The notes under the pieces were generated by a model. That model was given only the letters and a program-made list of their open reading frames with translations, was not told where the DNA came from and did not search any database. Of a DNA stretch of 64,000 nt, positions 9,891 through 35,750 are shown in pieces. The first letter of the stretch is position 1. Each line of letters starts with the position of its first letter. The stretch is from Zymoseptoria tritici IPO323 (taxonomy: Eukaryota > Ascomycota > Dothideomycetes > Mycosphaerellales > Mycosphaerellaceae): positions 3,596,001-3,660,000 of the forward strand of contig NC_018217.1 in assembly GCF_000219625.1 (NCBI RefSeq). The letters run 5' to 3'. Made by a program: the position numbers and the translations under genes.

Positions 9891-10064
9891 TGTTCAAAAA
9901 CACCAAACACCTCGCTCAGGTTTACTTGAACCCTTAAAGCCTCAGGCACCGTTTCACTTGAAGGCTCGTTATTATTATATGACTCGCTCGTTTCAGTTAG
10001 TCTATATAGCTTAAGGGCCTCCGCCCTTATAAATAAGTATTATTCTTTTTCCGCTTTTTGATCA
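9891..10064 (+). repeat. 5' LTR of copy 1 (174 bp)
   Basis: It begins TGTTCAAAAACACC and ends TTTTGATCA (TG...CA). It contains GTCTATATAGC and CTTATAAAT, TATA-like, around a short hairpin AAGGGC/GCCCTT. The 5' neighbour CAGG is the target duplication. Confidence 0.93.
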
Positions 10065-12961: not shown

Positions 12962-13928
12962 CATCGACATCCGCACTTCCATTGCACACCCAATATTGAC
13001 CCGATCATCACCAAACACGCACCATTCGAAAGCCCTTATCAAGGCCGTTCCAACGAACCCGCATTTACCCCGCTGCCCCCAAAACCTGCGCCGCTACTGG
13101 AGTTCAAAGATTCACCTTGTTGCCCCCTTTGGGGTGCAAATTTTCAAGGACACTGGACCCTGAACTCCGGGATTTGGCCCCCACCTCCGAAACCTTATTC
13201 CGACCTCACCTCCCCCACACTCGAAACATTCCCTGTTTAGGGCATTGCACAAGGAAGGTTCACAACCTGTACCACAACACTTCAACACACCACAACACAA
13301 CCAATACGCCGCCGATTCGGACGCCGTGTAGCCCGTTTGAAAGCCCTCGACGAGAGCTTTTATTCTAGCTATCAAACGCCTGATTTGGTCGAATTTTGAA
13401 AGAGCCAAAGGCCAAACAAGAGCAGTGTTCCCAGGATACACAAACACAAACATACACATACACTCAGTTCTCTCTACACTAGAGTTACCTGTTGTCCTAC
13501 GCCGCCGAGAGAGGAAGCTAAAGGAGCAGAGTGGTTTAGTAAGGACGAATTTGCACCTCTAGGGATTAGAGTAGTGGTACTAGCTGTATAGCTAGATACT
13601 CTGTATAGAGTATAGGCCTACCTTTCCCTAGAGACAAAGGTTGTCCCGAACCTGCTACGGCTACCCGCAGAACGCCTCTAAAGCCTGCTATAAAGACGCA
13701 CGTTGCTGCAGGCCAGAGTACTTCCTAGAAGCAGAGGTATATTTATATATCTCTTCTCTCCTCTTTGAAGTATACCTTCTCCTATACTACTTTGTATAGT
13801 AGGGAGAAGAGTGCCCTAGTGTCGCAAGTAGGCTAGGACCCGAACGCGATTGGAAATAGAGACGAACAAGCAGCCCTCTCGGCGTAAGACTGCTGAGCCT
13901 CTTTTCAAACAACAACAACAACAAGACA
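12962..13928 (+). other. LINE 5' UTR
   Basis: A 967-base leader before ORF1. It probably holds the internal promoter that LINEs need. Short frames on either strand here look accidental. (AAC)n repeats precede the ORF1 ATG. Confidence 0.6.
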
Positions 13929-14461
13929 ATGTCTACCGAGACGGAAATGACAGACGCAGGCTCAGCCCCTCAGACTCCAAAAGCTACGGCTAGAGGGGAC
14001 GAGGAAGTTACGTTTGAGTCTCTCAAAACCCTGCCGTTGCCGGAGGAACTACTAAAAAGAACCGGCTTTCCTTTCCTACCTAGGAAAAGGCAAAACCCCT
14101 TTGATTTCAGTAGCTCCCCAACTCGCAGCCCTTCTCTCGGAAAGAAACAAACACTCTCTTACACGCCCGCGAACGAGAAGATCCTACAAGCCCGACAGCT
14201 ACTAGTCGAAGCGGCGGGGGATCTAGTCGGGTTTCCAGGAGAACAAACCCGGGTTCTCGACCTTCTCGAAGTCTTTCGGCACTTTACCGAGCGTACAGAC
14301 TTTAGGACAACGTCCCAAATCCTCGCAAAGCAAGTCTCGAACCTAGAAATGACAACAAAGAAACTAGCAGCACAGGCGAAGAAGCCTACTTTCGCAGACG
14401 TTGTTAAGGGAGACAGCGGATCCGCTACCTCTACCTCTACCTCCTCGACAACAAAGACAAC

Positions 14462-14497
<36 letters not shown>

Positions 14498-15104
14498 GTG
14501 GACGACCGTCTCCCGGAGGGCTAGCAAGCCGAAAGAACAAGCAGAACCGATGCCTCTTATCCTTGTACCAAAGGATAAAGAGAAGGAACTCGACCAGATC
14601 GCAACCCGAGACAAAATCAACGACGCTCTTAAAGGCGAAGACCAAGAGCTAGCTGTCCTTGCGATAAAGAAATCATTTCGGGGTAACATTGTCCTAAACT
14701 TTGCAACAGAGAAAGCCCGCCAACGAACGATCGATAGCCTTACTAAGGTTACCGATATCGTAGGCGAGGCACGGGTAATAGAGGACTCTCTCTGGCACAA
14801 GGTCGTAGTCCACGGCGTCTCGACCGCGAACTTCAACACGCCAACGGGCCTACAGGACATTCAACGAGAAATTAAGACCTTTAATAGAGGTCTTAAACTC
14901 GCAGGCACCCCGATTTGGCTAACAAACGAAGAGAGAAGAAGGACTCTTACTGGGGCGACAGTTCTAGTAGGTTTTGCTACCGAGGAGGAGGCAAAAAGGG
15001 CTATTCAAAACCGTCTATACGTAGGCGCGGACAGCCTAAGAGTCGAGAAGGCGAAGGATCGTATACAACAGAAAGGGAGGCCCCTAGAACGTTCTACATG
15101 TTAG
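13929..15104 (+). CDS. LINE ORF1 protein (391 aa)
   Basis: An intact gag-like ORF from ATG 13929. The N-terminus is acidic and Thr/Pro-rich. A glutamine run is encoded by (CAA)n at about 14,462-14,497, followed by a WTTVSRRA segment. The C-terminal half (roughly residues 205-380, including VVVHGVSTANFNT and VLVGFATEEEAKRAIQ) resembles the RRM-like nucleic-acid-binding folds of LINE ORF1 proteins, which is inference. No CCHC knuckle is visible in this frame. Its stop TAG overlaps the ORF2 start in ATGTTAG, suggesting stop-and-restart translation of ORF2. Confidence 0.85.
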
Positions 15105-18100
15105 AACACTCTCTACGGATTTTCCACGTTAATCTTAACCGATCTATCGAGGCTACAGAGTCTACCTTAGACGTCGCGGTTAAGCAGAAAGCCGACCTTC
15201 TACTAGTCCAGGAACCGTGGACTATAGAAGACCCGATAACAGGCTACAAAGAGACGAGATCTATCGCACACCGGGAATACAACCAGCTATTCCCAACGAC
15301 TACGGATTCGACGATCCGGCCAAGAACAATGCTATATATTAGCACAAGACTCAACGTCAATATCTCTCCTATTTTATTAGACGACAGCGACATACTTTCC
15401 TTTGTTATTTCAGACAAGAAGGGCAACAAGATCCAGATAGTTAATCTCTACAACGAGAAAGACCTTCGGGATACCGAGAACCCGCAAAACCGACGAACAA
15501 CAGAGAGAACCCTCTACTCTCTACGCAACACGTTCCTTCCAAACACTCTACTAGTAGGAGACTTTAACCTTAGACACCCGTCCTGGGATCCGAGGGGAAA
15601 GGATACTACTAGCGCCCGCGAATTTATAGAGTGGATAGAAGACCAGGGCTTTACTCTACGTAATACGATAGGTGTCGGGACCTTCTATAGGCCGCACCTA
15701 GACGCAGAGTCGGTCCTAGACCTTACGTTCACAAGAGGATCCTTATCTACGAAAGAAATCGACTGGAGAACGATTCCGACAGGCTCAGACCATAAGGCTA
15801 TATCTATAGACCTTATTGGCGCGCAAGATCGAGCCCAACAGAAGAAAGTAGTTCTAGATATAGCTTCCGCGGATTGGGAACTGTTTACAGATCTCCTAAT
15901 AAGCAAGGCGACGTCTATTGACTATACGAACTCCCTCGACGACATCGCAGACTCCTTTACCTCGTGTATTACCGAATCGATGCGGGGAGCAATCCCAGAG
16001 AAAGTAGTACACGCCTGCGCAAAACCTTGGTGGAATAGAGAGCTACGCACGCTACGCCGTACAATGTCTAGAACATACAGACAGACCTTTACCGACGGAC
16101 GTACGCCGACGCTTGACGAGAAAGAGGCGTACACGAAAGCGAGAAACGAGTACTTCCAAGCTATTAAAACAGCTAAGAAGAACCACTGGAACGCTTTCCT
16201 CGAAAAAGAAGACTCGAAATCTATCTTTAAAGCTATGTCCTATACTAGGAATAGCAGCCGAAGACAGATACCTACGATAAACAACGAAGATTCTTTCGAG
16301 GGGAAATGTAAGGCCTTCTCCGAAGCCTTATTTCCGCGCCCTCCTGCCGAGGAACCTCTGCCTAGCCGTTGGGAAGCGTATACAGCCGGGGATTGGGGCT
16401 GGACTACGCTAACCGAAGAGGAACTCGCTGCCGCCTGTAGTACGAAGATAGTAAAAGGAAAAACGCCGGGCCCAGACGGTATTACGCAAGCTATTATTAG
16501 TAAAGCGTACGGCGCCATTCCTATTACCTTTCTACGTATATACAGTAGGCTACTCGACGAAGGACACCACCCCCGATGCTGGAAAGTTGCGACAGGCGCA
16601 GTTCTAGCAAAGCCGGGAAAACCAGACTATTCGGTCCCTAAGGCCTACCGAGTTATCTCTCTCCTAAACTGTCTCGGCAAGATTAGTGAGAGAATACTTG
16701 CAAAACGCCTAGGGATTATCGCAGAGACGAAGCCCCTTCTACACGACTCGCAGTTAGGAGGGCGAAAGAAGAAATCGGCTATCGATACGGTGCTTCTCTT
16801 AACGAACGAAATCGAGGAGAATCGAAGAAAGAAAAAGAAGACTTCGGTTATCTTCCTCGACGTAAGAGGAGCATACGACCACGTTGCAAAGAACCGACTG
16901 TTAAGAATAATGATCCAGTTAAGGCTTCCGCACAGCCTTATACGTTGGGTTCAGTCGTTTATGAGCAATAGACGCCTACGAATAGCATTCGACGGACAGA
17001 TACAGGAATTCCAGGACGTAGAGATCGGCGTTCCGCAAGGCAGCCCGATGTCTCCTATCCTCTTTCTTATCTATACGCGCGACATATTCTTCTCGCTACA
17101 AGGAGTCACTCCTAGTTCCTACGTCGACGACATTAGACTATCTACCTCGTCTACGTCCCTTAAGAAGAACTCTAAGGTACTAGAACGTGAGGCAAGAAGG
17201 CTAATAGACCTAGGAAAGAAGAACTCGATTGCTTTCGACCTAGCAAAGACAGACCTAGTACACTTCTCGAAAGGGAAAGGGTCCGATTGCCCGGTAATTC
17301 TTCCAAACGGCGATATTGTTCGCCCAGCAAAAAAGGCAATAAGGTGGCTCGGGATTTGGCTAGACGCCGGTCTTACCTTTAAGGAGCACATTGTAATAAG
17401 ATCGGCTCAAGCACAAGCGGCATTCTATCGATTAGAAAGACTAGCAAATACCGAACGCGGTCTGTCTTCTATATCGTTAAGAAAGATCTACCTAGCCTGC
17501 GTTACTACAATAGCAGACTACGGGGCCCCGGTTTGGTGGCGGTCGAAAAAGAGCATAAAACCTCTAGTATCTCTACAAAGTAAAGCTTGTAGGAAGATCC
17601 TAGGCGTTTTCCGTACCGCCCCAAACGTCCCGTCCGAAGTAGAGTCAAATCTCTTCCCCCCGGATCTACGCCTAGAGAGACAGTCAATTTTATACTCTCT
17701 ACGCGCAGCAAAGCTACCCGAAAACCACCCCGTAAGACTCGCTATCCAAAGCGCGCCTTCGGATACGCGAGAAGTCCAACACGAGGACTCGAGAGAGATA
17801 CTTCCGCAAAAACGACAGAGAACACAGATACAACTACTCTGTTATCGACTCCGACAATACAAGCATTTCGTAGAACACGAGAGGGCTAACTACGCAAAAG
17901 ACGATCTCTTTAGCGTCTGGAAAACCCGATACGAAATAGCAAGACAACGGGAGATCAACAAGGTACCTAGGAATACAAATAGCTACCTTAGTCGATTTCC
18001 ATGGAGCTCGCCAGGAAAACATAGAATAGGAGGAAGACGTGCTTTAACTAGTGCCTTCTATACTATCCTATTAGGACACGGATACCTAAAGTCCTATCTC

Positions 18101-18343
18101 TATCGCTTTGGACACGCAACGACGCCAGACTGCCCTTGCGGACGACGAGAAACAGCAGAACACCTCGTATGTAGCTGCCCTATCTACGACGTATTTAGGC
18201 CACTACCGCTACGACAAGCACAATCTCTGCTAGAAATAGTAGAAGATAAGGAACTCCGGAAACACCTTACTACCTTTCTCTCGGATACAAAGATTGCTTC
18301 TAGGTCCTGGCACCTAGCAAGAGGCGAAGACGAGATCGTCTAG
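15098..18343 (+). CDS. LINE ORF2: endonuclease and reverse transcriptase (1,081 aa)
   Basis: The ATG at 15098 overlaps the ORF1 stop by seven bases. The frame is open upstream to 14,915, but that part lies within ORF1. An apurinic-type endonuclease fills the N-terminus (LLLVQEPW; VGDFNLRHPSWD near residue 155; GSDHKAI near 230). The reverse transcriptase follows: PGPDGI near 457, FLDVRGAYDHV, GVPQGSPMSPILF near 644 and catalytic YVDD near 674. A C-terminal zinc knuckle CPCGRRETAEHLVCSC lies near 1,011. I see no RNase H domain, although many Tad/I-type elements have one. The ORF is complete and could be active. It would nick DNA and prime reverse transcription from its own 3' end. Confidence 0.93.
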   Translation: MLEHSLRIFHVNLNRSIEATESTLDVAVKQKADLLLVQEPWTIEDPITGYKETRSIAHREYNQLFPTTTDSTIRPRTMLYISTRLNVNISPILLDDSDILSFVISDKKGNKIQIVNLYNEKDLRDTENPQNRRTTERTLYSLRNTFLPNTLLVGDFNLRHPSWDPRGKDTTSAREFIEWIEDQGFTLRNTIGVGTFYRPHLDAESVLDLTFTRGSLSTKEIDWRTIPTGSDHKAISIDLIGAQDRAQQKKVVLDIASADWELFTDLLISKATSIDYTNSLDDIADSFTSCITESMRGAIPEKVVHACAKPWWNRELRTLRRTMSRTYRQTFTDGRTPTLDEKEAYTKARNEYFQAIKTAKKNHWNAFLEKEDSKSIFKAMSYTRNSSRRQIPTINNEDSFEGKCKAFSEALFPRPPAEEPLPSRWEAYTAGDWGWTTLTEEELAAACSTKIVKGKTPGPDGITQAIISKAYGAIPITFLRIYSRLLDEGHHPRCWKVATGAVLAKPGKPDYSVPKAYRVISLLNCLGKISERILAKRLGIIAETKPLLHDSQLGGRKKKSAIDTVLLLTNEIEENRRKKKKTSVIFLDVRGAYDHVAKNRLLRIMIQLRLPHSLIRWVQSFMSNRRLRIAFDGQIQEFQDVEIGVPQGSPMSPILFLIYTRDIFFSLQGVTPSSYVDDIRLSTSSTSLKKNSKVLEREARRLIDLGKKNSIAFDLAKTDLVHFSKGKGSDCPVILPNGDIVRPAKKAIRWLGIWLDAGLTFKEHIVIRSAQAQAAFYRLERLANTERGLSSISLRKIYLACVTTIADYGAPVWWRSKKSIKPLVSLQSKACRKILGVFRTAPNVPSEVESNLFPPDLRLERQSILYSLRAAKLPENHPVRLAIQSAPSDTREVQHEDSREILPQKRQRTQIQLLCYRLRQYKHFVEHERANYAKDDLFSVWKTRYEIARQREINKVPRNTNSYLSRFPWSSPGKHRIGGRRALTSAFYTILLGHGYLKSYLYRFGHATTPDCPCGRRETAEHLVCSCPIYDVFRPLPLRQAQSLLEIVEDKELRKHLTTFLSDTKIASRSWHLARGEDEIV

Positions 18344-18556
18344 CCTACACTCCTTTTACTTTTCCTTATTTGTCTTTCTTTAAAGTCCTTCGATACTAGC
18401 TTGCTACTATCCTAGGCACGGGTCTTTCCCTAAGGTCAAGAGATACGAGAGAACAACGATTGTACATAGATAGACTGCTGTCGCGAGACAGCCGTCCTAC
18501 ATAGTCATAGACTCATACAGGACGTAAATGGAACAAACAAACAAACAAACAAAAAC
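18344..18556 (+). other. LINE 3' UTR with two hairpins and ACAA tail
   Basis: Hairpin A is GCTGTC-gcga-GACAGC at 18477-18492. Hairpin B at 18494-18523 pairs GTCCT with AGGAC and, inside, AGTC with GACT. The tail is (ACAA)n-like and merges with the target duplication at 18557. The same two hairpins recur in the element at 36,969-37,767. Confidence 0.75.
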
Positions 18557-21500
18557 AACAAATCCTAATCGGCTTAGGGAAGCCCTATGTTACTTGTACC
18601 TAAGCTAGGAGGGAAATGGCGAATGTGCGTTAATTTTAGGGCTCTAAACAACGCTACCGTTAAGGATCGATTCCCCCTGCCTCGGATTTCCGACTACTTA
18701 GATGCATTTTATAGTTTAAGGTACTTTACTAAGATTAACTTAACCTCCGGGTTCTAGCAATTAAAAGTAAAGGAAGAGGACTAGCACAAGACAGCATTTA
18801 ACACTCGCTAGGGCAAATACTACTTTAAGGTAATGCCTTTTAGCTTGTGTAATGCACCGGCAAGCTTCTAGAGCTTAATAAACGAAGCCCTAAGAAAGCA
18901 CTTTTACAAGACGTATGTAGTTTACTTAGACGACATCGTAATCTTCTCCGAGACTTTAGAGGAGCACGAAGTCTACTTAAAGGAAGTCCTAAATATCCTG
19001 CGATTACAAGAGCTGTATTGCTCCCCTAAGAAATGCTATATTAGGGTTAAGGAATTCGACTTCTGTAGGCACCGAGTAAGCTATAATTAAGTCAGGCCTA
19101 TAGAAGACAAGATCTCTATTGTTAGAGACTAGCTACAGCCGACTAACGCTTAAGAAGTGCGGCAGTTTATTAGGCTAGCTTCCTTCTACCGCAAGTACGT
19201 TAGAGACTTTGCTAGGCACGCTGCTCTACTGTTAGACCTCCTTAAGGAAGATAACTTGCTGCTGCGTGCTAAGAAGAAGCGCCCTATTAAGTAGACTGCC
19301 TAGTACACTATCGCTTTTGCGAAGCTTAAGGAAGCCCTATGCAGCGAGCTAGTGCTAATTATGCTAGATACTAAGAAGCCCTTTATTATTAAAACGGATG
19401 CAAGTAAGTGGGCGCTTAGTGCAGTCCTACATTAAGCTAACTCTAATAGGAAATTGCATCTAGTTACTTTCGAGGGCCGCAAGCTGCAAGGGGCAGAACT
19501 AAACTATCTAGTGCACGAGAAGGAGCTCCTTGCTATTAAGGAAGCCCTTCGAAAATAGAACTACTATATCGACAATAGGACCAAGACTTAAGTAATTACG
19601 GATTACTACAGCCTGCAGTACCTAAAAACCTCGAAGACTCTAACTAAGCGGCTTGCACGCTAGATTAAGGAGTTTCAAGCTTACAACATCGACATCCGCT
19701 ACCGCAAGGGGAGTAAGGCTATAGTCCCTAATGCCCTCTCCCGCCGGCCGGACTTGATGGAAGGTACCCTAGCCAACATAGCCGGGGAGGGTTCTGCATG
19801 GCCTAGGGATTAATTACTTAAACCCGCGGACTTCTTAACTGCTTTGCCTTACTCCTTTAAGGAGAACGCTACAAGGGGGACGATTATACGAGGATTCTCC
19901 GAGCGTAAGGTAGTTAATAGAGTGATCTATTTCAAAACTATAGGGGAGATGCCCGAGAACAAGAAGCTAAGCCGCTTAATTAAAAAGAAGGTGTCAGATC
20001 TTGTCCTTAAGGACGACCTCCTGTATTATCGCGAGGCTAATAGAAGCCTTATACCCTACGTAGATCCGGAATTCCGGTAGGACTTCCTTAAGCGCTGCCA
20101 CAATAACTACGGGCACTTCGCACTGCCCGGCGTCTGCAGCATTCTTCGAGCGAGGGGCTAGTAGTAGTTACTTAAACAGGATGTTTATAACTACGCTTCC
20201 ACTTGCCCTTAGTGTCAAGCTACGAAGAAGAAGTCCCGGAGTCCCCTACAGGAACCGCGATTCTACCAAGCTAATTCTAAGCTTAAGCTATTTGAGCGCT
20301 GGGCGATTAATGTTGTCGGTCTAATGCCTGTTACACTTAATAGTAACAAGTACATTATTATAGCCGTAGATTATGCTACTAGTTAGCCGGTTGTAAGGGC
20401 CACCTCGAATTAAGAAACCGAGACGGTCGCTCGTTTTGTTTAAGAAGAGATCTATGCGAACTTTGGACCCCTAAGGGAAGTCCTTAGTAACAATAGATCT
20501 AACTTTATAAGTAAGGTGTTTAATATCCTCATAGATACCCTTTAAGCCAACTATAGGCTAACGACGCCCTACTATCCTCGTACGAACGGGAAGGTTAAGG
20601 CCTTAAACAGTGTTCTCGGCCGGATCCTCTCTAAGATGTGCTATAGTAAAAGCGTGCACGCTTGGGACTTGTACCTTCCTAAGGCGCTATATTCAAGCCG
20701 AATCCGGGCCCAGTCCGGTTGTAGATATAGCCCCTTCTTCCTCTTGTTCGGCTAGCAACCCCGAATACTTAAGGATTATCCGTACCTACGTCCGATGTAG
20801 CTTAAGCCCGAGGATCCTAAATCTAGGCATTAAGTAATGTAGAACGCTAGGACGATTACCGCAGAAAAGCTGCTTACGAAAGCAGTAAGAGCCGGCGCTA
20901 TTAGTAGATATACCTTTAAGGAAACTAATAGCAAGTTTATTAAGGGAGACTTTGTTCTTGTCTTAAATAAGACTAAGACGAAGCTCTAGCCGACCTTCGT
21001 AGGTTCCTTTAAGGTAATTAAGCGAAGCTAGCTTAGTACGTATACCTTAGAGTCCTACGACGGGTCTGTAGTTAAGCATTAAGTGCATAGTAATTGCCTG
21101 ATCTGCGCTAACTACACTAGTTTTAGGGACTGGCAGAAGCGCTGTAGACAGGAGATTTTACTTAAGGCCGCTGGCTAGGAGTTTAAGGACTCCTTGCGTA
21201 AGGATCTTGCACTTAATCTATGCTTAAGTTTCTCTACTCTAGCGACTATCCCTAAGCAGAAGTAGGACAAGTTGTCTTTACAGCAGCTTAAACAGTTAGG
21301 AGCCCTTCGATTCCTTTTAGGGGAGGGTAAACCTTTAGATTCTTTAAAAACTAACGATTAGCTAAAGTTTTAACATAAGCTTAAACTCGCTGCTAATAAG
21401 ATCCGAAGGAAGCATAGAGATGTTTTACGCGCGAATCGAGACAATACTAAGGAGGTAGAGAAACTTAAGGCTACTCTCGAAAAGAAACGTCTTAGGGAGC

Positions 21501-22050
21501 TAAAGAAGTTAGTACCCTTAAGTTAGCCGGTTATACATCCGGTAAATGCAGCAGCAACATTAAGGGAAGACGCTTAAGTTAACCCTATTGCAGCAACTGT
21601 TCCTATCCCTACGGAGCCTGTTATAGAAGAAACGGAAGAGGAATTACTTGTAATCCCTTCCGAGCTCTAGGAGACTCTACTTAAACCCTAAGGGGAGTCG
21701 GGTAATAACGAGGACACTATTATAGTTGTGCCCCGTTAACGACTACCCTAGAACACAAGGAAAGCTCCTCGTAATCCTACGGTGCAGCTACGAAGGAAGC
21801 TAACCTTTAAGTCTAAACGAAAGGTTAATGCGAGGGCCTAAGTTTAATAGATCCCCCGGAGGGTTTTTATTTTATGTTTTCTGTACTTAAGGCCATTCCT
21901 TAAAGTGCTATTATACATTTATTTCGCGCTGGCTTTCTAGCGTCGTATCGCATTGCATCGTATGCAGAAAAAAGAAAAACAAGAAAAACAACGCTTTTAG
22001 TGCTCCTACTTAAGCCTACGAATTTTCTACCGATCCTACTTAGACCCGAA

Positions 22051-24351
22051 TTAACCCTTCTTAGCCTGCTCCCTCTTAGCATCTTCTTCCTTCTTAGTAA
22101 TAAGCTGCGTCTTAAGGGCTAACATTACCGCCTGCAAGTGCAGCATCTAAGGAGTAATGCCTTAATTAGCCCTAAGACGCACTTAAGCCCGCGAGAGAGC
22201 TATCTAGACGACTTAATATACGGAGTAGCGCTTATTAAAGCGGTTACGGTAGAGCTGCTTAATGTGCTCCGTATACACGCGCGTGCGTTAGCTTCCTTAA
22301 GGAACTGTTGGGCCCTCTACGCTGTATGCTTAACGCCTATTATTAGCCCGAGGAGCCGTGCTAAAGAACAGGTTCCCCTAGGTAGCGAAACCGCTTAAGG
22401 GGAGCACTAGCTCGTGTATAAGGCGGCCGGAGAAGGTTAGAATTAGGTCGTAATTATTAGTTAAGCTAGTCCGTGCTAGTATTAAGGTCTGATCGATAGC
22501 GTATAAGAGCCTCTCTCCTTCGTGCATTAGATCTACGAAATCCTCCGCCGCATTATAGAACGGTAGGCTTGGAGATTGACGAGCTGGAGCTAGTGCGTTT
22601 TGAACAGGAGCAGGCATGTTGCTCGGCCGAGGAGGCGGGCCCCGACGAGTACTTAAACCAGGGGGCCCTAGCGCTAGAGTGCCTTGACGATCGCCTGTCG
22701 GGAAGAGGGCGGGGCCAGGCCTAGAGGAACCTTATTGCCCTATGCGGAAGAGTGGAGGTGCGTTAGCCGGACGGGTCGTACGCCTAGCTTAAGGGTTGTC
22801 GCGGCGATACATGTTATCTATAGTTATAGGCATTCCTTGTGCGTAGTTCTTAGGAAGCTAGAAGGACAAAGGCCTAGTACCCGGAGATCTACCGAACCCC
22901 CTTAAAGGATCTAAGTAAGGACGCTCTAGCCGCGAAGGAGTAGTGTCTATCTCCTCACGAGCAGACAAAGGACCCCTTAAGTTAGGGGAACGAGCTGCTA
23001 CAGCTATTAAGTTAATGTCCTCTATGTCGGCGATATTCGTCTAACTAGTAAGGAATAGGTTAAGCAGCTATATAACTCTACCGGATCCAGAATTAAAAGG
23101 TCTAGGGCTAGAAGGCGGCGGGCTTAAGGGCACTTAGATAGGCTCTTCTAGGAGCGGAATTAAGACTTCCTCCTTAAAGTCTACCTACTCGTCCTCCGCA
23201 TCGTTATTACCTTCCTTAGCCTTCGGGTTCCTCTTCTTAGTCCTAGTCTTTCCCTAGAGTTTAGAATCCCTAGCCGAACAGCGATTGTAGTAGTTAGTAT
23301 AGCTGTAGTTAGTATAGTAGCTAAAGCAGCCTCTACTACTGCGGCATAACTTAAAGGGACCGGCCTTGCGCTTGCCGGACTCGCAGCTACAGTTGCCTTC
23401 TTAAGGGCTGCTACCGAGAGCTTAAGTAAAAAGAGAGACTAGACGCTATTGCTTGCAGGCCCTAATAAGGTAACCGTCCGATTTACGCTAGTCTAAGCTG
23501 CGCAGATCGCCTAGCTTAAACGCTTAAAGTCCATCGATTAAGGCATTAAGTTAGGAAATCGTAAAGGCAGCTAGAAATTGCCGGAGGTACTTAATAGGCG
23601 CATTCGACACTATGATTAGATAATACATCACTTCCCTTATCTATACGTCCGTAACCGCGATGCGATTAGAGGCTAGGCTAGGAGTAAGGAGAGCTTTAAG
23701 TCGAGCGCCGACAGAGGCGTATATAGCAGTACTATTAATATTTCCTTAAGGGTCGAAGCGATCTAGCTTAGGGTACAAGCTACGAAGATCCGGAGAGCGG
23801 TTAAGGACGTTACGAGGCATCGTAGGGTCCTAACCTTATGCAGCAGTGCGACTCCTTAAGCTACGGCCCTAGTTCGCTAGTTAAGGGTTGCGCTAAGGGA
23901 TTTCGTAATTGTTGCTTATAGGAGCGCGTGTGCCTAGTAGCTTAGACCTAAGGCTTAAGGCAGACATATTAAGCCTATCGCGATAAGCATCGTATGCCGA
24001 CTTGTAACTAGTAGCTTGCTTATACCCAAATTTAGTATACTCTATGCGGTTACGCCGAGACATAACATTAGGCTGGACGTAGAGTTTCCTTAAAGCGAAC
24101 TTGTCTATTAATTCTTAGGTAGCAGCAGCTCGTAACGGCTGCTTCTTGCTGCTTAATACCGAGCCGAATGCTTAAGTTAACATTCTTATATCTAAGTATC
24201 CGCGCTTAACTGTCTTAATAGCACTTTAAACAGCCTTCGCAGGAGGGAACTTAGGGGGTAGTTTGCGAGGAGATCGGCGGAGCTACTTGTCGACCTTGTC
24301 GTCCTTGCTCTTATTGTCTTTCTTGCGCTTGTCTTCGTCACCCTTCGCTAT
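22051..24351 (-). pseudogene. Copy 1 antisense ORF, 767 codons, Cys-rich domain
   Basis: The minus strand between pol and the 3' LTR reads in one register for 2,301 bases. Its stops are all TAG or TAA, with no TGA seen. The likely start is ATA at 24351-24349 in GCT-ATA-GCG, an ATG-GCG damaged by RIP (inference). A TATATA lies about 55 bases upstream at 24406-24411. The N-terminus is Lys/Asp-rich. Codons near 321-358 (23391-23278) encode NCSCESGKRKAGPFKLCRSS and then GCF, a cysteine-rich segment that recalls DUF3716 (C..C..G.GPF..C...G.CANC...CS.R). A Pro/Ser-rich linker and a helical C-terminus follow. The end is uncertain and may be as far as about 21,937. AATAAA follows near there. Function unknown. 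Confidence 0.72.
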
Positions 24352-24755
24352 AGCGACTATTGCTTAAGGTGTGTTGTAATGTTATAAGGTGTAGTAATCG
24401 TAGACTATATAAAGGTCTAAGGAAAAGGGAAGGAAAGGGTTGCGGAAGTTAATAAAAGAGAGAGGGTTTGAAAAGAAGAACGCAGTCGCTTTTATACCCT
24501 TAGAGGGGCGACCTGCTAGTGAATTCGACTATATGCCAGCAGTTACTAGCTTAAGGCTTGTAATAGTACGAGAATTAGATTATTCACCTGCTAGAATTAG
24601 CTAGACGATTGCACTTAAGCCCTTACCTTCCGAGCAATTACGGACCTCCTAGATCGAGATTACGCATACCTACTTAAGAGCATTAGCATATAACCTAAGC
24701 CTTTAATTAAGGTTGTTACGAACGCTTAAGGTTACGCATTTACTAAAGGGGAGGA

Positions 24756-24929
24756 TATTCAAAAACACTAAACACCTCGCTTAGGTTTACTTGAACCCTT
24801 AAAGCCTTAGGCACCGTTTTACTTAAAGGCTCGTTATTATCATATAACTCGCTCGTTTCAGTTAGTCTATATAGCTTAAGGGCCTCCGCCCTCATAAATG
24901 AGTATCATTCTTTTTCCGCTTTTTGATCA
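24756..24929 (+). repeat. 3' LTR of copy 1 (174 bp)
   Basis: It begins TATTCAAAAACACT, with the canonical TG changed to TA, and ends TTTTGATCA. All differences from the 5' LTR that I saw are transitions, consistent with RIP. CAGG follows at 24930. Confidence 0.93.
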
Positions 24930-26320: not shown

Positions 26321-26494
26321 TGTTCAAAAACACCAAACACCTCGCTCAGGTTTACTTGAACCCTTGAAGCCTCAGGCACCGTTTCACTTGAAGGCTCGTT
26401 ATTATTATATAACTCGCTCGTTTTAGTTAGTCTATATAGCTTGAGGGCCTCCGCCCTTATAAATGAGTATTATTCTTTTTCCGCTTTTTAATTA
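26321..26494 (+). repeat. 5' LTR of copy 2 (174 bp)
   Basis: It begins TGTTCAAAAACACC and ends TTTTAATTA, the latter a RIPped form of TTTTGATCA. It is preceded by TATC. Confidence 0.92.
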
Positions 26495-27011
26495 TCTAGT
26501 AGCTAAGAGCACTTAAGGCGGCTCCTTAGCCGTCTTACCGGCTAGCTCTGCCACTTAAGGGTCAGAGCTGGCCGGATGCTCGATTTATTGCCCATTTAAT
26601 TAAACCAGCTTAAAACGACTCTAGTTTAAGACCTCCTTAGACCTATGGACTATACCGGACTTTCTACTTGGACTGTATACCTAACTAGAAGTACCGGGTT
26701 TTCTATAGCTAGGGGTCCTATATATAGCGATTCACTTAGCGGTGCTATATGTGCTAGATTGCCAACTTCTACTTAAACGTTAACGCAAAACTCGTTTTGC
26801 CTTAAGTTTAAGACTTAAAGCATAGAATTACCGCACTTAAAACTAGTTACCTAAACACTTAAAGCGCGCTATGTTTGAACACGACAATAGCCAGAGCTGC
26901 CTAGCCGCTTAAGGAACTACAAGGAGGAAGTTATAACCCTTTAAGTTACCGGAAGCAATAACAACAGCAACTTAATTTAGTTCGATTAACAACCTATCCT
27001 ACTAAGACAAG

Positions 27012-28491
27012 ATGTCCGTTACTAGCTAAGCCGAAGGAACTACAGAGCTTCCTTCCTCCTACGACTTAAACCTAACAGTCGCTAAAGGAGAAAGGCTTAA
27101 GGAAGATAGGCAAGGCTATCTAAGCCTAATCGACGAACTTAATCGCATTAAGGAACAAGGTAGCGATGTAGGGGCGGCACTATCTACCACTGCTCGTCTC
27201 TTCCCTAAAGGAGATCCTTAGACGGATCCCCTAGCTCTACTTAGAGCTAATGTTACCTTCCGAACTCCTACTTAACTAAGCCGACCTGCTGCTAATGTAG
27301 GCTTAGGCCCTACTCGTTTTAGCGAGTATGTGGCCGCCTTAAGGGAAATAGAGGAACATATCAATCGACTTAAAGCGGACGCTATCCGACTTTAGGCCGA
27401 GAACGCCCGCTTGTCCTAGGAGCCTGTTCGAGCAGGATCTGCTAATAGGCCTATCCGGGGACTAAGCAAGCCAGGAGCTGTACGGTTTAAGCTATCCCTA
27501 TATCGAGGAGATAACCCTGGACACAGCTTAAGTGACGATAAGGGACTAAGTCGTCCCTATCGCCACACGTCTGGAACACTAGGCAGGGATACAACTCCCC
27601 TTAATTCCTTAGATACTTCTATTAAGGCTTCCGTCCGGGCACTAGAACTATACTAGGGAGACACTCGAAACAACGCTGCTAATATCTAGGTCAGGTCTAT
27701 AGAGCGTTACTTAAGGTCTCAGATTGCCCTAAGATAGAGGGGTATCCGCCTATCCGAAGCTAACCTTATCGAATTAGTAGGTAGCTAGATGTAGCGTAAC
27801 GCCCTTGCCTAGTAGGAGGAACAGGAAGAGACTTGTAGGCTTGAAATTATCGAGGGAACCTATACCCTTAACTTAATACTCAGCAACCTCGTCTCCTATT
27901 TCTAAGATTATTATTACTAAGAGAAGCTCTAGAGACAATACCGAGCTCTTAAGTAAACAGGAGGTATTATTACCTTCTATTACAAAATCCTCTCTGTAGC
28001 TCGCATGCTTAAGCTAAGGCCTAATAACTTCTCTAATGCTACTATCTTCTTTAATAGGCTTAAGCTGTCGATCCGAGCGGAGCTTATTCGACATAAGCTT
28101 ACCCCTTAAAAGGCTAGACTGCAGGAGATTATAAACCAGGCTTAAGCTATTAATGCAGCTAACTAGGAGGTCGTAGATTCTTAAAGGGGCCCGAGAATAG
28201 ATGCCCCTACCTTTAAGGAAAACCGTAATGCTCTTGCTCGAAAAGCCTTTAAGCCGAGAAAGGTAAACAAGACTACGGTAGAGTATGTTGCCGCTGCCCT
28301 TAAATACATAACTACCGACAACAACTCCAAACCTTAAGAGTATTCCTTAAAGTGCTATAACTGCGGAGTCGCCGGACACACCTAGTATCGCTATTAGAAG
28401 AAGCTTAAGCTAGACTTGTAGAAGAAGCAGGACGACTATAATAGACGCAAGGGGGGCTTAAGCAAGCCGACAAAAAAATAGACAGCGACTT
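27012..28491 (+). pseudogene. Copy 2 gag
   Basis: The ATG at 27012 opens a frame equivalent to copy 1 gag, with TAG/TAA stops and the same CCHC knuckle. The A7 slip site is at 28482-28488 and the gag stop TAG at 28489-28491. The slip site is identical in both copies. Confidence 0.82.
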
Positions 28492-31400
28492 AGATGCTAA
28501 GGATTCTAAGTCGTCTGTTGCGTCGCCCTTATTGCTTAGGACCCCTCCTAATGCTTAACTTAACTACCTTAACGCTATAGGACCAAACCTTTTAGTTACC
28601 CCTAGACGCTTAGGTTTAAGTAAGCATTCTGTTAAGGCTAAGTTCCTGTTCGACACTAGGGCTACGCGTGTATACATCTTACGAACGATCGCGGACTAGT
28701 TTCCGGAGGCTTAAGTGGCTATAGATTCCCAGACCGTGGTTCTGCCTAACGGCACAGCAATAGAGACAACCCTTAGGGTTAAGCTGCCTTACTAGCTGCG
28801 TAACTTCAAGGGGGAAATCACTGCCTAAGTGCTTAATCTCGCTAATCACGAGGTAATCCTTGGCCTTGAATAGTTTAGGCAGTACTGCCCGACTATTAAT
28901 TTCTTTACGAACAAGGTGTACTTATACGACAACGGTGTTAAGTATGCTATACTATGCTCTAGATACGCTCCTAACTTAAGGAGCGTTCCGGTAGATGAGG
29001 ACCTCTATTCCCTTAAGGAACTAGAGGACTTACTTAACGTTAATCCCGACATGCCCTTATATCTCTTAAATATAGATAAATACTAGGAGCGGCAGCAGGA
29101 GAGGGAACGCGATCCTAAGGACGACCCTATGTCTATTAAGGAAGACGACGTTCCTCCTCCCTTAAGTAAGGAACCCAGCTTAAGCCGCATTATCCTAGAC
29201 AACAGGGATCTGTTTAGATCTTCCTTGCCTAACAAGCTACTAAAGGACCGGTTTATTGTGCATTTAATCGACACCGGGGACTACAAGCCGATTAATTAAT
29301 AGCCTTACTAGCTGTCTTATGCCTAATCGCTTAAACAGGAGTCTTAAATCGAGGAACTCTGGAAGCGTAGGTTAATTAACAAATCCTAATCGGCTTAGGG
29401 AAGCCCTATGTTACTTGTACCTAAGCTAGGAGGGAAATGGCGAATGTGCGTTAATTTTAGGGCTCTAAACAACGCTACCGTTAAGGATCGATTCCCCCTG
29501 CCTCGGATTTCCGACTACTTAGATGCATTTTATAGTTTAAGGTACTTTACTAAGATTAACTTAACCTCCGGGTTCTAGCAATTAAAAGTAAAGGAAGAGG
29601 ACTAGCACAAGACAGCATTTAACACTCGCTAGGGCAAATACTACTTTAAGGTAATGCCTTTTAGCTTGTGTAATGCACCGGCAAGCTTCTAGAGCTTAAT
29701 AAACGAAGCCCTAAGAAAGCACTTTTACAAGACGTATGTAGTTTACTTAGACGACATCGTAATCTTCTCCGAGACTTTAGAGGAGCACGAAGTCTACTTA
29801 AAGGAAGTCCTAAATATCCTGCGATTACAAGAGCTGTATTGCTCCCCTAAGAAATGCTATATTAGGGTTAAGGAATTCGACTTCTGTAGGCACCGAGTAA
29901 GCTATAATTAAGTTAGGCCTATAGAAGACAAGATCTCTATTGTTAGAGACTAGCTACAGCCGACTAACGCTTAAGAAGTGCGGCAGTTTATTAGGCTAGC
30001 TTCCTTCTACCGCAAGTACGTTAGAGACTTTGCTAGGCACGCTGCTCTACTGTTAGACCTCCTTAAGGAAGATAACTTGCTGCTGCGTGCTAAGAAGAAG
30101 CGCCCTATTAAGTAGACTGCCTAGTACACTATCGCTTTTGCGAAGCTTAAGGAAGCCCTATGCAGCGAGCTAGTGCTAATTATGCTAGATACTAAGAAGC
30201 CCTTTATTATTAAAACGGATGCAAGTAAGTGGGCGCTTAGTGCAGTCCTGCATTAAGCTAACTCTAATAGGAAATTGCATCTAGTTACTTTCGAGGGCCG
30301 CAAGCTGCAAGGGGCAGAACTAAACTATCTAGTGCACGAGAAGGAGCTCCTTGCTATTAAGGAAGCCCTTCGAAAATAGAACTACTATATCGACAATAGG
30401 ACCAAGACTTAAGTAATTACGGATTACTATAGCCTGCAGTACCTAAAAACCTCGAAGACTCTAACTAAGCGGCTTGCACGCTAGATTAAGGAGTTTCAAG
30501 CTTACAACATCGACATCCGCTACCGCAAGGGGAGTAAGGCTATAGTCCCTAATGCCCTCTCCCGCCGGCCGGACTTGATGGAAGGTACCCTAGCCAACAT
30601 AGCCGGGGAGGGTTCTGCATGGCCTAGGGATTAATTACTTAAACCCGCGGACTTCTTAACTGCTTTGCCTTACTCCTTTAAGGAGAACGCTACAAGGGGG
30701 ACGATTATACGAGGATTCTCCGAGCGTAAGGTAGTTAATAGAGTGATCTATTTCAAAACTATAGGGGAGATGCCCGAGAACAAGAAGCTAAGCCGCTTAA
30801 TTAAAAAGAAGGTGTCAGATCTTGTCCTTAAGGACGACCTCCTGTATTATCGCGAGGCTAATAGAAGCCTTATACCCTACGTAGATCCGGAATTCCGGTA
30901 GGACTTCCTTAAGCGCTGCCACAATAACTACGGGCACTTCGCACTGCCCGGCGTCTGCAGCATTCTTCGAGCGAGGGGCTAGTAGTAGTTACTTAAACAG
31001 GATGTTTATAACTACGCTTCCACTTGCCCTTAGTGTCAAGCTACGAAGAAGAAGTCCCGGAGTCCCCTACAGGAACCGCGATTCTACCAAGCTAATTCTA
31101 AGCTTAAGCTATTTGAGCGCTGGGCGATTAATGTTGTCGGTCTAATGCCTGTTACACTTAATAGTAACAAGTACATTATTATAGCCGTAGATTATGCTAC
31201 TAGTTAGCCGGTTGTAAGGGCCACCTCGAATTAAGAAACCGAGACGGTCGCTCGTTTTGTTTAAGAAGAGATCTATGCGAACTTTGGACCCCTAAGGGAA
31301 GTCCTTAGTAACAATAGATCTAACTTTATAAGTAAGGTGTTTAATATCCTCATAGATACCCTTTAAGCCAACTATAGGCTAACGACGCCCTACTATCCTC

Positions 31401-32662
31401 GTACGAACGGGAAGGTTAAGGCCTTAAACAGTGTTCTCGGCCGGATCCTCTCTAAGATGTGCTATAGTAAAAGCGTGCACGCTTGGGACTTGTACCTTCC
31501 TAAGGCGCTATATTCAAGCCGAATCCGGGCCCAGTCCGGTTGTAGATATAGCCCCTTCTTCCTCTTGTTCGGCTAGCAACCCCGAATACTTAAGGATTAT
31601 CCGTACCTACGTCCGATGTAGCTTAAGCCCGAGGATCCTAAATCTAGGCATTAAGTAATGTAGAACGCTAGGACGATTACCGCAGAAAAGCTGCTTACGA
31701 AAGCAGTAAGAGCCGGCGCTATTAGTAGATATACCTTTAAGGAAACTAATAGCAAGTTTATTAAGGGAGACTTTGTTCTTGTCTTAAATAAGACTAAGAC
31801 GAAGCTCTAGCCGACCTTCGTAGGTTCCTTTAAGGTAATTAAGCGAAGCTAGCTTAGTACGTATACCTTAGAGTCCTACGACGGGTCTGTAGTTAAGCAT
31901 TAAGTGCATAGTAATTGCCTGATCTGCGCTAACTACACTAGTTTTAGGGACTGGCAGAAGCGCTGTAGACAGGAGATTTTACTTAAGGCCGCTGGCTAGG
32001 AGTTTAAGGACTCCTTGCGTAAGGATCTTGCACTTAATCTATGCTTAAGTTTCTCTACTCTAGCGACTATCCCTAAGCAGAAGTAGGACAAGTTGTCTTT
32101 ACAGCAGCTTAAACAGTTAGGAGCCCTTCGATTCCTTTTAGGGGAGGGTAAACCTTTAGATTCTTTAAAAACTAACGATTAGCTAAAGTTTTAACATAAG
32201 CTTAAACTCGCTGCTAATAAGATCCGAAGGAAGCATAGAGATGTTTTACGCGCGAATCGAGACAATACTAAGGAGGTAGAGAAACTTAAGGCTACTCTCG
32301 AAAAGAAACGTCTTAGGGAGCTAAAGAAGTTAGTACCCTTAAGTTAGCCGGTTATACATCCGGTAAATGCAGCAGCAACATTAAGGGAAGACGCTTAAGT
32401 TAACCCTATTGCAGCAACTGTTCCTATCCCTACGGAGCCTGTTATAGAAGAAACGGAAGAGGAATTACTTGTAATCCCTTCCGAGCTCTAGGAGACTCTA
32501 CTTAAACCCTAAGGGGAGTCGGGTAATAACGAGGACACTATTATAGTTGTGCCCCGTTAACGACTACCCTAGAACACAAGGAAAGCTCCTCGTAATCCTA
32601 CGGTGCAGCTACGAAGGAAGCTAACCTTTAAGTCTAAACGAAAGGTTAATGCGAGGGCCTAA
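28482..32662 (+). pseudogene. Copy 2 pol polyprotein
   Basis: Protease, reverse transcriptase (YLDDIVIFSE at 29,744), RNase H and integrase in one register, ending at TAA 32660-32662. It is uninterrupted by the LINE. I saw only three differences from copy 1 pol, all transitions, so it shares nearly all of copy 1's RIP stops. Confidence 0.86.
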
Positions 32663-32871: not shown

Positions 32872-35172
32872 TTAACCCTTCTTAGCCTGCTCCCTCTTAG
32901 TATCTTCTTCCTTCTTAGTAATAAGCTGCGTCTTAAGGGCTAACATTACCGCCTGCAAGTGCAGCATCTAAGGAGTAATGCCTTAATTAGCCCTAAGACG
33001 CACTTAAGCCTGCGAGAGAGCTATCTAAACGACTTAATACACGGAGTAGCGCTTATTAAAGCGGTTGCGGTAGAGCTGCTTAATGTGCTCCGTGTACACG
33101 CGCGTGCGTTAGCTTCCTTAAGGAACTGTTGGGCCCTCTGCGCTATATGCTTAACGCCTATTGTTAGCCCGAGGAGCTGTGCTAAAGAACAGGTTCCCCT
33201 AGGTGGCGAAACCGCTTAAGGGGAGCACTAGCTCGTGTATAAGGCGGCCGGAGAAGGTTGGAATTAGGTCGTAATTATTAGTTAAGCCGGTCCGTGCTAG
33301 TATTAAGGTCTGATCGATAGCGTATAAGAGCCTCTCTCCTTCGTGCATTAGATCTACGAAATCCTCCGCCGTATTATAGAACGGTAGGCTTGGAGATTAA
33401 CGAGCTGGAGCTAGTGCGTTTTGAACGGGAGCAGGCATGTTGCTCGGCCGAGGAGGCGGGCCCCGACGAGTACTTAAACTAGGGGGCCCTAGCGCTAGAG
33501 TGCCTTAACGATCGCCTGTCGGGAAGAGGGCAGGGCTAGGCCTAGAGGAACCTTGTTGCCCTATACGGAAGAGTAGAGGTGCGTTAGCCGGACGGGTCGT
33601 ACGCCCAGCTTAAGGGTTGTCGCGGCGATATATGTTATCTATGGTTATAGGCATTCCTTGTGCGTAGTTCTTAGGAAGCTAGAAGGACAAAGGCCTAGCA
33701 CCCGGAGATCTACCGAACCCCCTTAAAGGATCTAAGTAAGGACGCTCTAGCCGCGAAGGAGTAGTGTCTATCTCCTCACGAGCAGACAAAAGACCCCTTA
33801 AGTCAGGGGAACGAGCTGCTACAGCTATTAAGTTAATGTCCTCTATGTCGGCGATATTCGTCTAACTAGTAAGGAATAGGTTAAGCAGCTACGTAACTCT
33901 ACCGGATCCAGAATCGAAAGGTCTAGGGCTAGAAGGCGGCGGGCTTAAGGGCACTTAGATAGGCTCTTCTAGGAGCGGAATTAAGACTTCCTCCTTAAAG
34001 TCTACCTACTTGTCCTCCGCATCGTTATTACCTTCCTTAGCCTTCGGGTTCCTCTTCTTAGTCCTAGTCTTTCCCTAGAGTTTAGAATCCCTAGCCGAAC
34101 AGCGATCGTAGTAGTTAGTGTAGCTATAGTTAGCACAGCAGCCAAAGCAGCCTCCACTACTGCGGCATAACTTAAAGGGACCGGCCTTGCGCTTACCGGA
34201 CTCGTAGCTATAGTTGCCTTCTTAAGGGCTGCTACCGAGAGCTTAAGTAAAAAGAGAGACCAGACGCTATTGCTTATAGGCCCTAATAAGATGACCGTCC
34301 GATTTACGCTAGTCTAAGCTGCGCAGATTGCCTAGCTTGAACGCTTAAAGTCTATCGATTAAGGTATTAAGTTAGGAAATCGTAAAGGCAGCTAGAAATT
34401 GCCGGAGGTACTTAATAGGCGTATTCGACACTATAATTAGACAATACATCACTTCCCTTATCTATGCGTCCGTAACCGCGATGCGATTAGAGGCTAGGCT
34501 AGGAGTAAGGAGAGCTTTAAGTTAAGCGCCGACAGAGGTGTACATAGCAGTGCTATTAATGTTTCCTTAAGGGTCGAAGCGATCTAGCTTAGGGTACAAG
34601 CTACGAAGATCCGGAGAGCGGTTAAGGACGTTATGAGGCATCGTAGGGTCCTAACCTTATGCAGTAGTGCGACTCCTTAAGCTACAGCCCTAGTTCGCTA
34701 GTTAAGGGTTGCGCTAAGGGATTTCGTAATTGTTGCTTGTAGGAGCGCGTGTGCCTAGTAGCTTAGACCTAAGGCTTAAGGCAGATATGTTAAGCCTATC
34801 GCGATAAGCATCGTATGCCGACTTGTAACCGGTAGCTTGCTTATACCCGAATTTGGTGTACTCTATGCGGTTACGCCGAGACATAATATTAGGCTAGACG
34901 TAGAGTTTCCTTAAAGCAAACTTGTCTATTAATTCTTAGGTAGCAGCAGCTCGTAACGGCTGCTTCTTGCTGCTTAATACCGAGCCGAATGCTTAAGTTA
35001 ACATCCTTATATCTAAGTATCCGCGCTTAACTGTCTTAATAGCACTTTAAACAGCCTTCGTAGGAGGGAACTTAGGGGGTAGTTTGCGAGGAGATCGGCG
35101 GAGCTACTTGTCGACCTTGTCGTCCTTGCTCTTGTCGTCTTTCTTACGCTTGTCTTCGTTACCCTTCGCTAT
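32872..35172 (-). pseudogene. Copy 2 antisense ORF, 767 codons
   Basis: It has exactly the same length and register as in copy 1, with the start codon again ATA at 35172. The cysteine-rich domain lies at 34212-34099. Here the first cysteine pair has become tyrosine but GGCFGCCAN is retained, whereas copy 1 keeps the first pair and has lost the later ones. Together they show an ancestral domain rich in Cys. TAG/TAA stops only. Confidence 0.72.
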
Positions 35173-35576: not shown

Positions 35577-35750
35577 TGTTCAAAAACACTAAACACCTCG
35601 CTCAGGTTTACTTGAACCCTTAAAGCCTCAGGCACCGTTTTACTTGAAGGCTCGTTATTATTATATAACTCGCTCGTTTCAGTTAGTCTATATAGCTTAA
35701 GGGCCTCCGCCCTCATAAATAAGTATCATTCTTTTTCCGCTTTTTGATCA
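35577..35750 (+). repeat. 3' LTR of copy 2 (174 bp)
   Basis: It begins TGTTCAAAAACACT and ends TTTTGATCA. It is preceded by the purine tract AAAGGGGAGGA and followed by TATC. Confidence 0.92.

What the first reader, a model, noticed from the sequence alone, without database searches (positions are those of the whole stretch)
22051..24351. Convergent 767-codon antisense gene inside an LTR retrotransposon family, with a DUF3716-like cysteine-rich domain
Seen: in both copies (22051-24351 and 32872-35172) the minus strand between pol and the 3' LTR reads in one register for exactly 2,301 bases. Stops are only TAG/TAA, which RIP makes from TGG, CAG and CAA; I saw no TGA and no indel between copies. 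The start codon is ATA followed by GCG in both copies, as expected from a RIPped ATG-G. A TATATA lies about 55 bases upstream, and AATAAA follows the far end. A Cys-rich segment near codons 321-358 retains different cysteines in each copy. Known: extra antisense ORFs between pol and the 3' LTR are described for some plant retrotransposons. I do not recall a fungal gypsy family carrying a long convergent gene of this kind. Inference: a captured or ancient accessory gene of the element, possibly DNA- or RNA-binding.
Basis: partly seen in the sequence, partly recalled or inferred. Interest (0 to 1): 0.82.

Follow-up and report, generated by a model that had tools for sequence, protein, structure and literature searches.

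The report
Backwards gene in fungal retrotransposon family
A family of jumping elements in a fungus (most likely the wheat pathogen Zymoseptoria tritici) carries an extra gene that runs backwards at its far end; the gene is broken by mutation in the copies examined, its sequence changes the way a protein kept by selection does, it likely made a nucleic-acid-binding helper of the element, and a similar backwards gene is already described in Botrytis.

Summary
Both window copies have one minus-strand register of 767 codons between pol and the 3' LTR, without TGA and without indels. Thirty genomic copies confirm a protein-coding gene: fewest stops of six frames in all 30, no TGA in 28, length divisible by three in 28. 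Transversions between subfamilies gather at third codon positions; their non-synonymous/synonymous ratio is 0.21-0.28 here for three pairs, 0.44-1.85 in five control frames of two of them. A cysteine-rich segment (codons 318-365) is among the more constrained parts. 36 of 37 pol pieces have the gene downstream. All near-full-length copies carry RIP-type stops.

DUF3716 stays below Pfam's cut-off and fails a profile comparison.

New: in one subfamily the gene's third positions are about four times more diverged than the flanking spacers, suggesting exchange between element lineages. Function is inferred: a nuclear nucleic-acid-binding accessory protein.

The parts
22051..24351 (-). Antisense accessory gene (aORF), copy A: 767 codons including the final stop, broken by 34 internal stops
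32872..35172 (-). Antisense accessory gene, copy B: same length, no indel against copy A, 37 internal stops
23257..23400 (-). Cysteine-rich segment of copy A (codons 318-365), weakly DUF3716-like; seven Cys/Tyr columns among copies
34078..34221 (-). Cysteine-rich segment of copy B
9891..10064 (+). 5' LTR of copy A, begins TG; preceded by CAGG (4-base target-site duplication)
24756..24929 (+). 3' LTR of copy A, ends CA, followed by CAGG
26321..26494 (+). 5' LTR of copy B (begins TGTTC), preceded by TATC
35577..35750 (+). 3' LTR of copy B, TG...CA, followed by TATC (4-base target-site duplication)
29417..29884 (+). Reverse transcriptase domain of pol, copy B (RVT_1, E=5.5e-25), read in pieces with X at stops
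30188..30505 (+). RNase H domain of pol, copy B (RT_RNaseH, E=5.5e-27)
30881..31051 (+). Integrase zinc-binding domain, copy B (Integrase_H2C2, E=1.6e-7): RT, RNase H, integrase order of Ty3/Gypsy elements
24352..24755 (.). Spacer between the start of the antisense gene and the 3' LTR; where its promoter would lie (inferred)
21851..22050 (.). Spacer between the approximate end of pol and the stop of the antisense gene
12962..18556 (+). LINE inserted in copy A, with open ORFs at 13929-15104 and 14915-18343 (the second with endonuclease and RT); not part of the antisense gene

Best explanation
The minus-strand frame at 22051-24351 (and 32872-35172) is a protein-coding antisense accessory gene of a Ty3/Gypsy-type LTR retrotransposon, broken by RIP-type mutations in the copies examined, and its product was likely a basic, probably zinc-binding nuclear protein that would bind the element's own RNA or DNA and regulate or assist its transposition. 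Shown: position between pol and the 3' LTR, antisense frame, conservation of length and frame, third-position bias of transversions, low non-synonymous change in the cysteine-rich segment, near-universal presence beside pol. Inferred: transcription from a promoter in the 0.4-kb spacer or in the 3' LTR, nuclear location (basic N-terminus and C-terminal part), metal binding by the cysteines, and action on the element's nucleic acid. Also inferred: the gene moves between element lineages as a module, by template switching or recombination, because its silent sites are much more diverged than the element around it.
For: Coding: 28 of 30 copies have a length divisible by three, and alignment gaps of 3-24 bases are all multiples of three (the exceptions are a 1-base gap in L015 and the cut end of L008). 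The frame has the fewest stops of the six in all 30 copies. TGA is absent from it in 28 of 30; of the two others, one TGA is terminal (L024) and one is in the frameshifted copy (L015). Five copies keep ATG at the start: L003, L009, L018, L019, L020. Transversions, which RIP does not make, fall 33/30/86, 21/12/44 and 36/28/73 on codon positions 1/2/3 between the three subfamilies (p=2e-9, 2e-5, 3e-6). The non-synonymous/synonymous transversion ratio is 0.22, 0.21 and 0.28 for these pairs, against 0.44-1.85 in the five other frames of the first two. Cysteine-rich segment (codons 301-370): 0/1/13 transversions at positions 1/2/3 between L019 and L029. Cys/Tyr columns cluster at codons 321-358. 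Linkage: 36 of 37 pol pieces have the gene downstream on the same strand within 15 kb. Basic protein: computed pI 9.9 overall, 10.1 for residues 1-45, 10.8 for 660-770, stops left out. Module: third-position transversions L001-L029 84 of 757 against 18 of 605 in the two spacers (p=5e-9) and 15 of 652 pol third positions (p=2e-11). Analogues named in PMC7264820 and PMC11963269: nuclear Grande GENE23, Retand TRP28 domain with predicted DNA binding (passages).
Against: No transcription data were available. The TATATA upstream is a RIP product and the AATAAA downstream is missing in 7 of 30 copies, so no promoter and no sure poly(A) signal is identified. No domain passes a curated cut-off. The profile-profile comparison of the cysteine-rich segment with 11 DUF3716 segments of the same genome failed (0.2% probability). 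No homologue turned up in two protein searches or among solved structures (best E=1.9). One small comparison ran against constraint in the cysteine-rich segment: L018-L028, 0.5 synonymous and 3.5 non-synonymous, ratio 1.13. In L019-L028 that segment (0.23) is no more constrained than codons 1-300 (0.17). The sense frame whose third positions fall on the antisense third positions also shows a ratio below 1 (0.44-0.49), and one other control is 0.88. The part after codon 370 is less constrained (third-position test p=0.09 for L019-L028), and residues 390-660 are acidic (pI 5.5). The excess divergence could partly reflect constraint on spacers and LTR rather than exchange.
Confidence: 0.5

Rival explanations
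1. The antisense transcript, not the protein, matters: convergent transcription makes double-stranded RNA that silences or tunes the element, and the open frame is incidental.
For: PMC7264820 raises this for plant antisense ORFs (passages read). The gene converges on pol with a spacer of about 200 bases.
Against: An RNA-only role does not predict indels in multiples of three, missing TGA, or a non-synonymous/synonymous transversion ratio of 0.21-0.28.
Confidence: 0.1
2. A recently captured host gene carried as a passenger, without a role for the element.
For: Retrotransposons do capture genes (discussed in PMC7264820, passages). DUF3716 genes exist in the host.
Against: All 43 protein-level matches in the genome lie at places also found by DNA as copies. 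The gene sits beside 36 of 37 pol pieces and stays constrained between subfamilies whose third positions differ by about 6-11% in transversions alone. It has no similarity at E<=1 to the 16 DUF3716 candidate loci of the genome.
Confidence: 0.12
3. The gene is an orthologue of brtn of Boty, that is, one ancient antisense gene of fungal Ty3 elements (compatible with the best explanation).
For: Same place and orientation as brtn (PMC7264820, passages; PMC8365987, passages).
Against: No homologue of any kind scored, although the database holds fungal proteins.
Confidence: 0.25
4. A sense-strand env-like gene whose complement looks open, or chance after RIP.
For: One sense frame is second best in transversion ratio (0.44-0.49), as expected where its third positions coincide with the antisense third positions.
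Against: The antisense frame has the fewest stops in all 30 copies; in L019 the three sense frames have 5-13 TGA against none. The synonymous share of transversions is 54-55% in the antisense frame against 7-35% in the others (L019 against L028 and L029; 45% in the third pair, L028-L029).
Confidence: 0.02

Closest known systems
brtn, antisense gene of Boty-like Ty3/Gypsy elements, Botrytis cinerea (Zhao et al. 2011; known here only through citing papers PMC8365987, PMC7264820, PMC4227169, PMC5987419)
   Same: Filamentous ascomycete, Ty3/Gypsy element, extra gene between pol and the 3' LTR, antisense to gag-pol
   Different: Host class differs (Botrytis against Zymoseptoria; classes recalled). 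Boty gag-pol has a chromodomain (PMC4227169 passage); none was found at E<=1 in the pol pieces scanned here, up to 32272. Sequence relation untested
Retand (TRP28 domain), Grande gene23, RIRE2, PvRetro13 antisense ORFs of plant Gypsy elements (PMC11963269, PMC7264820; passages)
   Same: Antisense ORF between pol and the 3' LTR, kept in most copies, likely DNA-binding or nuclear product in the cases studied
   Different: Plant elements. The Pfam matches of this protein and of five cysteine-rich segments at E<=10 were to DUF3716 and ADAMTS_CR_3 only, all below cut-off, so no TRP28; TRP28 is described as present only in flowering plants
DUF3716 (PF12511) proteins
   Same: Cysteine spacing and a GPF..C-like block in some copies; best copy E=0.0023
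   Different: 4 of 29 copies match at E<=1, best 18.3 bits against a cut-off of 22; profile comparison negative; no blastp similarity at E<=1
Antisense genes of deltaretroviruses (HBZ of HTLV-1), named in PMC11963269
   Same: Antisense gene of a reverse-transcribing element, nuclear product (as cited there)
   Different: No sequence relation claimed or tested

Membership tests
Ty3/Gypsy LTR retrotransposon (the element) | RT, RNase H, integrase in that order | tested here: met
   RVT_1 5.5e-25, RT_RNaseH 5.5e-27, Integrase_H2C2 1.6e-7 in that order; the integrase catalytic core itself gave no match
Ty3/Gypsy LTR retrotransposon (the element) | Two LTRs with TG...CA ends and short target-site duplications | tested here: met
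   174-base LTRs, TG...CA in the 3' LTR of copy B and RIP-altered ends elsewhere; CAGG and TATC flank copies A and B
Ty3/Gypsy LTR retrotransposon (the element) | Recognisable gag | tested here: inconclusive
   No Pfam match in 26772-28121 at E<=1; not pursued further
Antisense accessory ORF between pol and 3' LTR (aORF-3R, as in Boty, Retand, Grande) | Antisense, between pol and the 3' LTR | tested here: met
Antisense accessory ORF between pol and 3' LTR (aORF-3R, as in Boty, Retand, Grande) | Present in most copies of the family | tested here: met
   36 of 37 pol pieces (some are parts of one split copy); the exception is interrupted by a LINE
Antisense accessory ORF between pol and 3' LTR (aORF-3R, as in Boty, Retand, Grande) | Protein-coding constraint | tested here: met
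Antisense accessory ORF between pol and 3' LTR (aORF-3R, as in Boty, Retand, Grande) | Antisense transcription | not testable with these tools
   No RNA data; TATATA is a RIP product, AATAAA in 23 of 30 copies
brtn orthologue | Sequence similarity to BRTN | not testable with these tools
   The paper is not held, so no sequence was at hand; indirect searches found no homologue
DUF3716 (PF12511) | Score at or above the curated cut-off of 22 bits | tested here: not met
   Best 18.3 bits, E=0.0023, L018, of five copies; 4 of 29 copies at E<=1, best E again 0.0023
DUF3716 (PF12511) | Profile similarity to DUF3716 segments of the same genome | tested here: not met
   hhalign probability 0.2%; the 29 rows are RIPped, so the test is weak

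The most novel reading that the evidence does not exclude
The antisense gene is an exchangeable counter-defence module. It encodes a DUF3716-like zinc protein, of a kind that at least one other transposon-like repeat family in the same genome also carries (two DUF3716 genes beside DUF6589). It swaps between retrotransposon lineages and acts in the nucleus against silencing or RIP, so that transposons in RIP-active fungi recurrently recruit one chromatin-binding domain.
Probability: 0.12. Interest if true: 0.85.

Novelty: new member of a known kind. Interest (0 to 1): 0.5.

Why it matters
Antisense genes between pol and the 3' LTR are known in plants and in Boty of Botrytis, but their role is open (PMC7264820, PMC11963269). 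This is a fungal case with codon-level evidence of selection from about 30 copies and three subfamilies. It also suggests that the gene has a history of its own, separate from the element around it. If other fungal Ty3 families carry related genes, these would form a natural comparative set for asking what such proteins do. It further shows how RIP can manufacture an apparent TATA box, a trap for annotation.

Tried and rejected
Pfam on the read-through protein (stops as X): only a sub-threshold ADAMTS_CR_3 match, judged a generic cysteine effect. Solved structures: one match at E=1.9, taken as chance. Protein database: 7996 and 2354 candidates, none at E<=0.01 and E<=0.1. As a control, an intact host DUF3716 ORF found two Zymoseptoria proteins, so fungi are held. 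Structure prediction: not available. Idea that L028 carries the gene on another pol: rejected; L028 is cut at telomere-like CCCTAA repeats next to an RT-bearing repeat with 49 matching rows. Idea that C7:803980 is an element without the gene: not supported; a LINE interrupts it at the end of pol (L053), and the far side was not examined. DUF3716 membership: not established. TATATA as a promoter: rejected. AATAAA: a first look at 5 copies suggested a RIP product, but the count over 30 copies (23 with it, less mutated ones among them) does not bear that out, so it is left open. Rows dropped before counting: L027, L032, L033, L034, L035 and L036 (interrupted or fragmentary) were not among the 30 copies, and L031 there is partial; L008, L015 and L031 were left out of the 27 used; L008 and L015 out of the 28; L031 out of the 29. 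In one search, 39 of the 45 rows were used (six small pieces of split copies left out); six of these 39 had no pol piece upstream, and three genes were matched by two pol pieces each.

Full report
What was checked. The minus strand of 22051-24351 and 32872-35172 reads in one register for 2,301 bases, without TGA and without an indel between the copies, starting ATA-GCG. Copy A is a 9891-24929 insertion with 174-base LTRs and a CAGG duplication, split by a LINE at 12962-18556. Copy B spans 26321-35750 with a TATC duplication. Pol has RT, RNase H and integrase zinc-binding domains in Ty3/Gypsy order.

Genome and host. The window lies in a 39.69-Mb genome of 21 contigs. An intact ORF of that genome is 95% identical to a protein of Zymoseptoria tritici ST99CH_3D7 and 48% to one of Z. 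brevis; the size and contig number match the Z. tritici reference as I recall it. The gene gives 45 matching rows at DNA level and 43 at protein level, all of the latter at places also found by DNA. All near-full-length rows hold 19 or more internal stops; the only row without stops is a 30-residue fragment.

Coding evidence. I extracted 30 copies, one of them (L031) partial. 28 have lengths divisible by three. Every gap in the alignment is a multiple of three except one base in L015 and the cut end of L008. The antisense frame has the fewest stops of the six in all 30, and no TGA in 28; the two exceptions are a terminal TGA (L024) and the frameshifted L015. Five copies begin with ATG. In L019, the copy with fewest stops in this frame, the frame has 20 stops and no TGA, the other five frames 27-49 stops with 5-13 TGA. 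RIP makes only transitions, so I used transversions for the selection tests. Between subfamilies they fall 21/12/44 (L019-L028), 33/30/86 (L019-L029) and 36/28/73 (L028-L029) on codon positions 1/2/3. Within the main family (24 copies), columns with a transversion polymorphism fall 15/14/43; those shared by at least two copies fall 12/13/23. The transversion ratio of non-synonymous to synonymous change is 0.21-0.28 for the three subfamily pairs, against 0.44-1.85 in the five control frames of two of them; the lowest controls (0.44, 0.49) are the sense frame whose third positions fall on the antisense third positions.

Domains of constraint. Codons 301-370 show 0/1/13 transversions between L019 and L029 and 1/0/6 between L019 and L028. 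Ratios there are 0.11-0.23 in the three subfamily pairs; L018-L028 goes the other way on four events (1.13). The stretch after codon 370 is looser (0.24-0.35 between subfamilies) and holds every gap of the alignment apart from the missing start of L031. Seven columns between codons 321 and 358 read only Cys or Tyr across 28 copies (which looked at the first 433 codons), as RIP of Cys codons would give; codons 244 and 299 do so too.

DUF3716. One copy reaches E=0.0023 (18.3 bits, cut-off 22) and one 0.052, of five scanned. Of 29 copies, 4 match at E<=1 and 4 match an unrelated cysteine-rich family. Profile comparison with 11 DUF3716 segments of the same genome gave 0.2%, and blastp against the 16 DUF3716 candidate loci gave nothing at E<=1. 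The resemblance is a lead only.

Signals. The TATATA at -60 occurs in 15 of 29 copies and is missing from the less mutated L003, L009, L018 and L019; it is best read as a RIP product. AATAAA lies within 260 bases downstream in 23 of 30 copies, at differing places, including the less mutated L003, L009 and L020 but not L018, L019, L012, L015, L024, L028 or L030. It stays open whether it is a signal.

Linkage and history. 36 of 37 pol pieces have the gene downstream on the same strand within 15 kb; some pieces are parts of one split copy, and six of 39 gene rows have no pol piece upstream. The exception is interrupted by an oppositely oriented LINE at the end of pol. Against copy A, the L029-type copies (L029, L030, L031) differ by 1.2-1.4% transversions in the end of pol, 3.5-4.1% in the first spacer, 5.2-5.5% in the gene, 2.5-2.7% in the second spacer and 1.8-2.3% in the LTR, where present. 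Third positions of the gene (84 of 757) exceed the spacers (18 of 605, p=5e-9) and pol third positions (15 of 652, p=2e-11); first and second positions do not exceed the spacers (p=0.2). A second group (L020, L021, L022, L024, L026) has 30-34 transversions in the gene, concentrated after column 1240, with 0.1-0.5% in pol and the second spacer, 0.5-2.0% in the first spacer and 0.6-1.7% in the LTR. Of 30 differences between L020 and L019, 19 match L028 or L029, so retained ancestral states are possible too. I read this as exchange of the gene between lineages, with constraint on the spacers as the alternative.

Literature. What I saw: search listings and passages. PMC7264820 and PMC11963269 (passages) describe antisense ORFs between pol and the 3' LTR in plants; the former also names Boty. 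PMC8365987 (passages) cites Zhao et al. [quoted passage not shown] that paper itself was not held and is known here only through citing papers. PMC4227169 and PMC5987419 (passages) mention brtn. PMC3248453 and PMC5445492, surveys of fungal LTR elements, do not use the word antisense. Four papers on Zymoseptoria transposons do not use the word antisense in the main text (PMC4522978, PMC4502367, PMC9970103, PMC8445621). DUF3716 occurs in no paper of the library. Within these searches I found no earlier description of this gene in Zymoseptoria.

Verdict. A real antisense accessory gene, a new member of a known kind, with a conserved cysteine-rich segment and a likely history of exchange between element lineages. 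Coding status is close to certain; the proposed function is inference by analogy, cysteine pattern and basic charge.

Noticed in passing
L040-L049 (G000 C8, C2, C5, C6, C13, C3), for example G000:C2:1982330-1988262: A RIPped repeat family with two DUF3716 genes in tandem about 2.8 kb apart and the end of a DUF6589 frame upstream; 17 near-full matches to the first DUF3716 part. A second kind of repeat in the same genome carrying DUF3716.
   Followed up: partly
window 22051-24351 and its genomic copies: RIP context: where at least one copy keeps CA, the fraction changed to TA is 0.78-0.91 after C or T but 0.17-0.36 after A or G, so mutation prefers pyrimidine-CA.
   Followed up: partly
window 12013-22079 (copy A, LINE excluded) against 28443-32900 (copy B): The two neighbouring copies are almost identical here (3 differences) but differ by about 3.7% on either side: looks like a gene-conversion tract.
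   Followed up: partly
window 12962-18556: LINE with open ORFs (the longer with endonuclease and RT) inside copy A, yet poor in CpA/TpG (ratio 0.67), bounded by a direct repeat AACAAATCCTAATC.
   Followed up: partly
L028 6200-10000: This copy is cut at telomere-like CCCTAA repeats next to an RT-bearing repeat with 49 matching rows; PMC4522978 describes Penelope-like subtelomeric elements ending in telomeric repeats (passages).
   Followed up: yes
L037, L039 (G000:C7 about 1.71 Mb): Two neighbouring DUF3716 matches in frames without stops, about 6 kb apart; the L037 ORF is 95% identical to a Z. tritici protein.
   Followed up: partly
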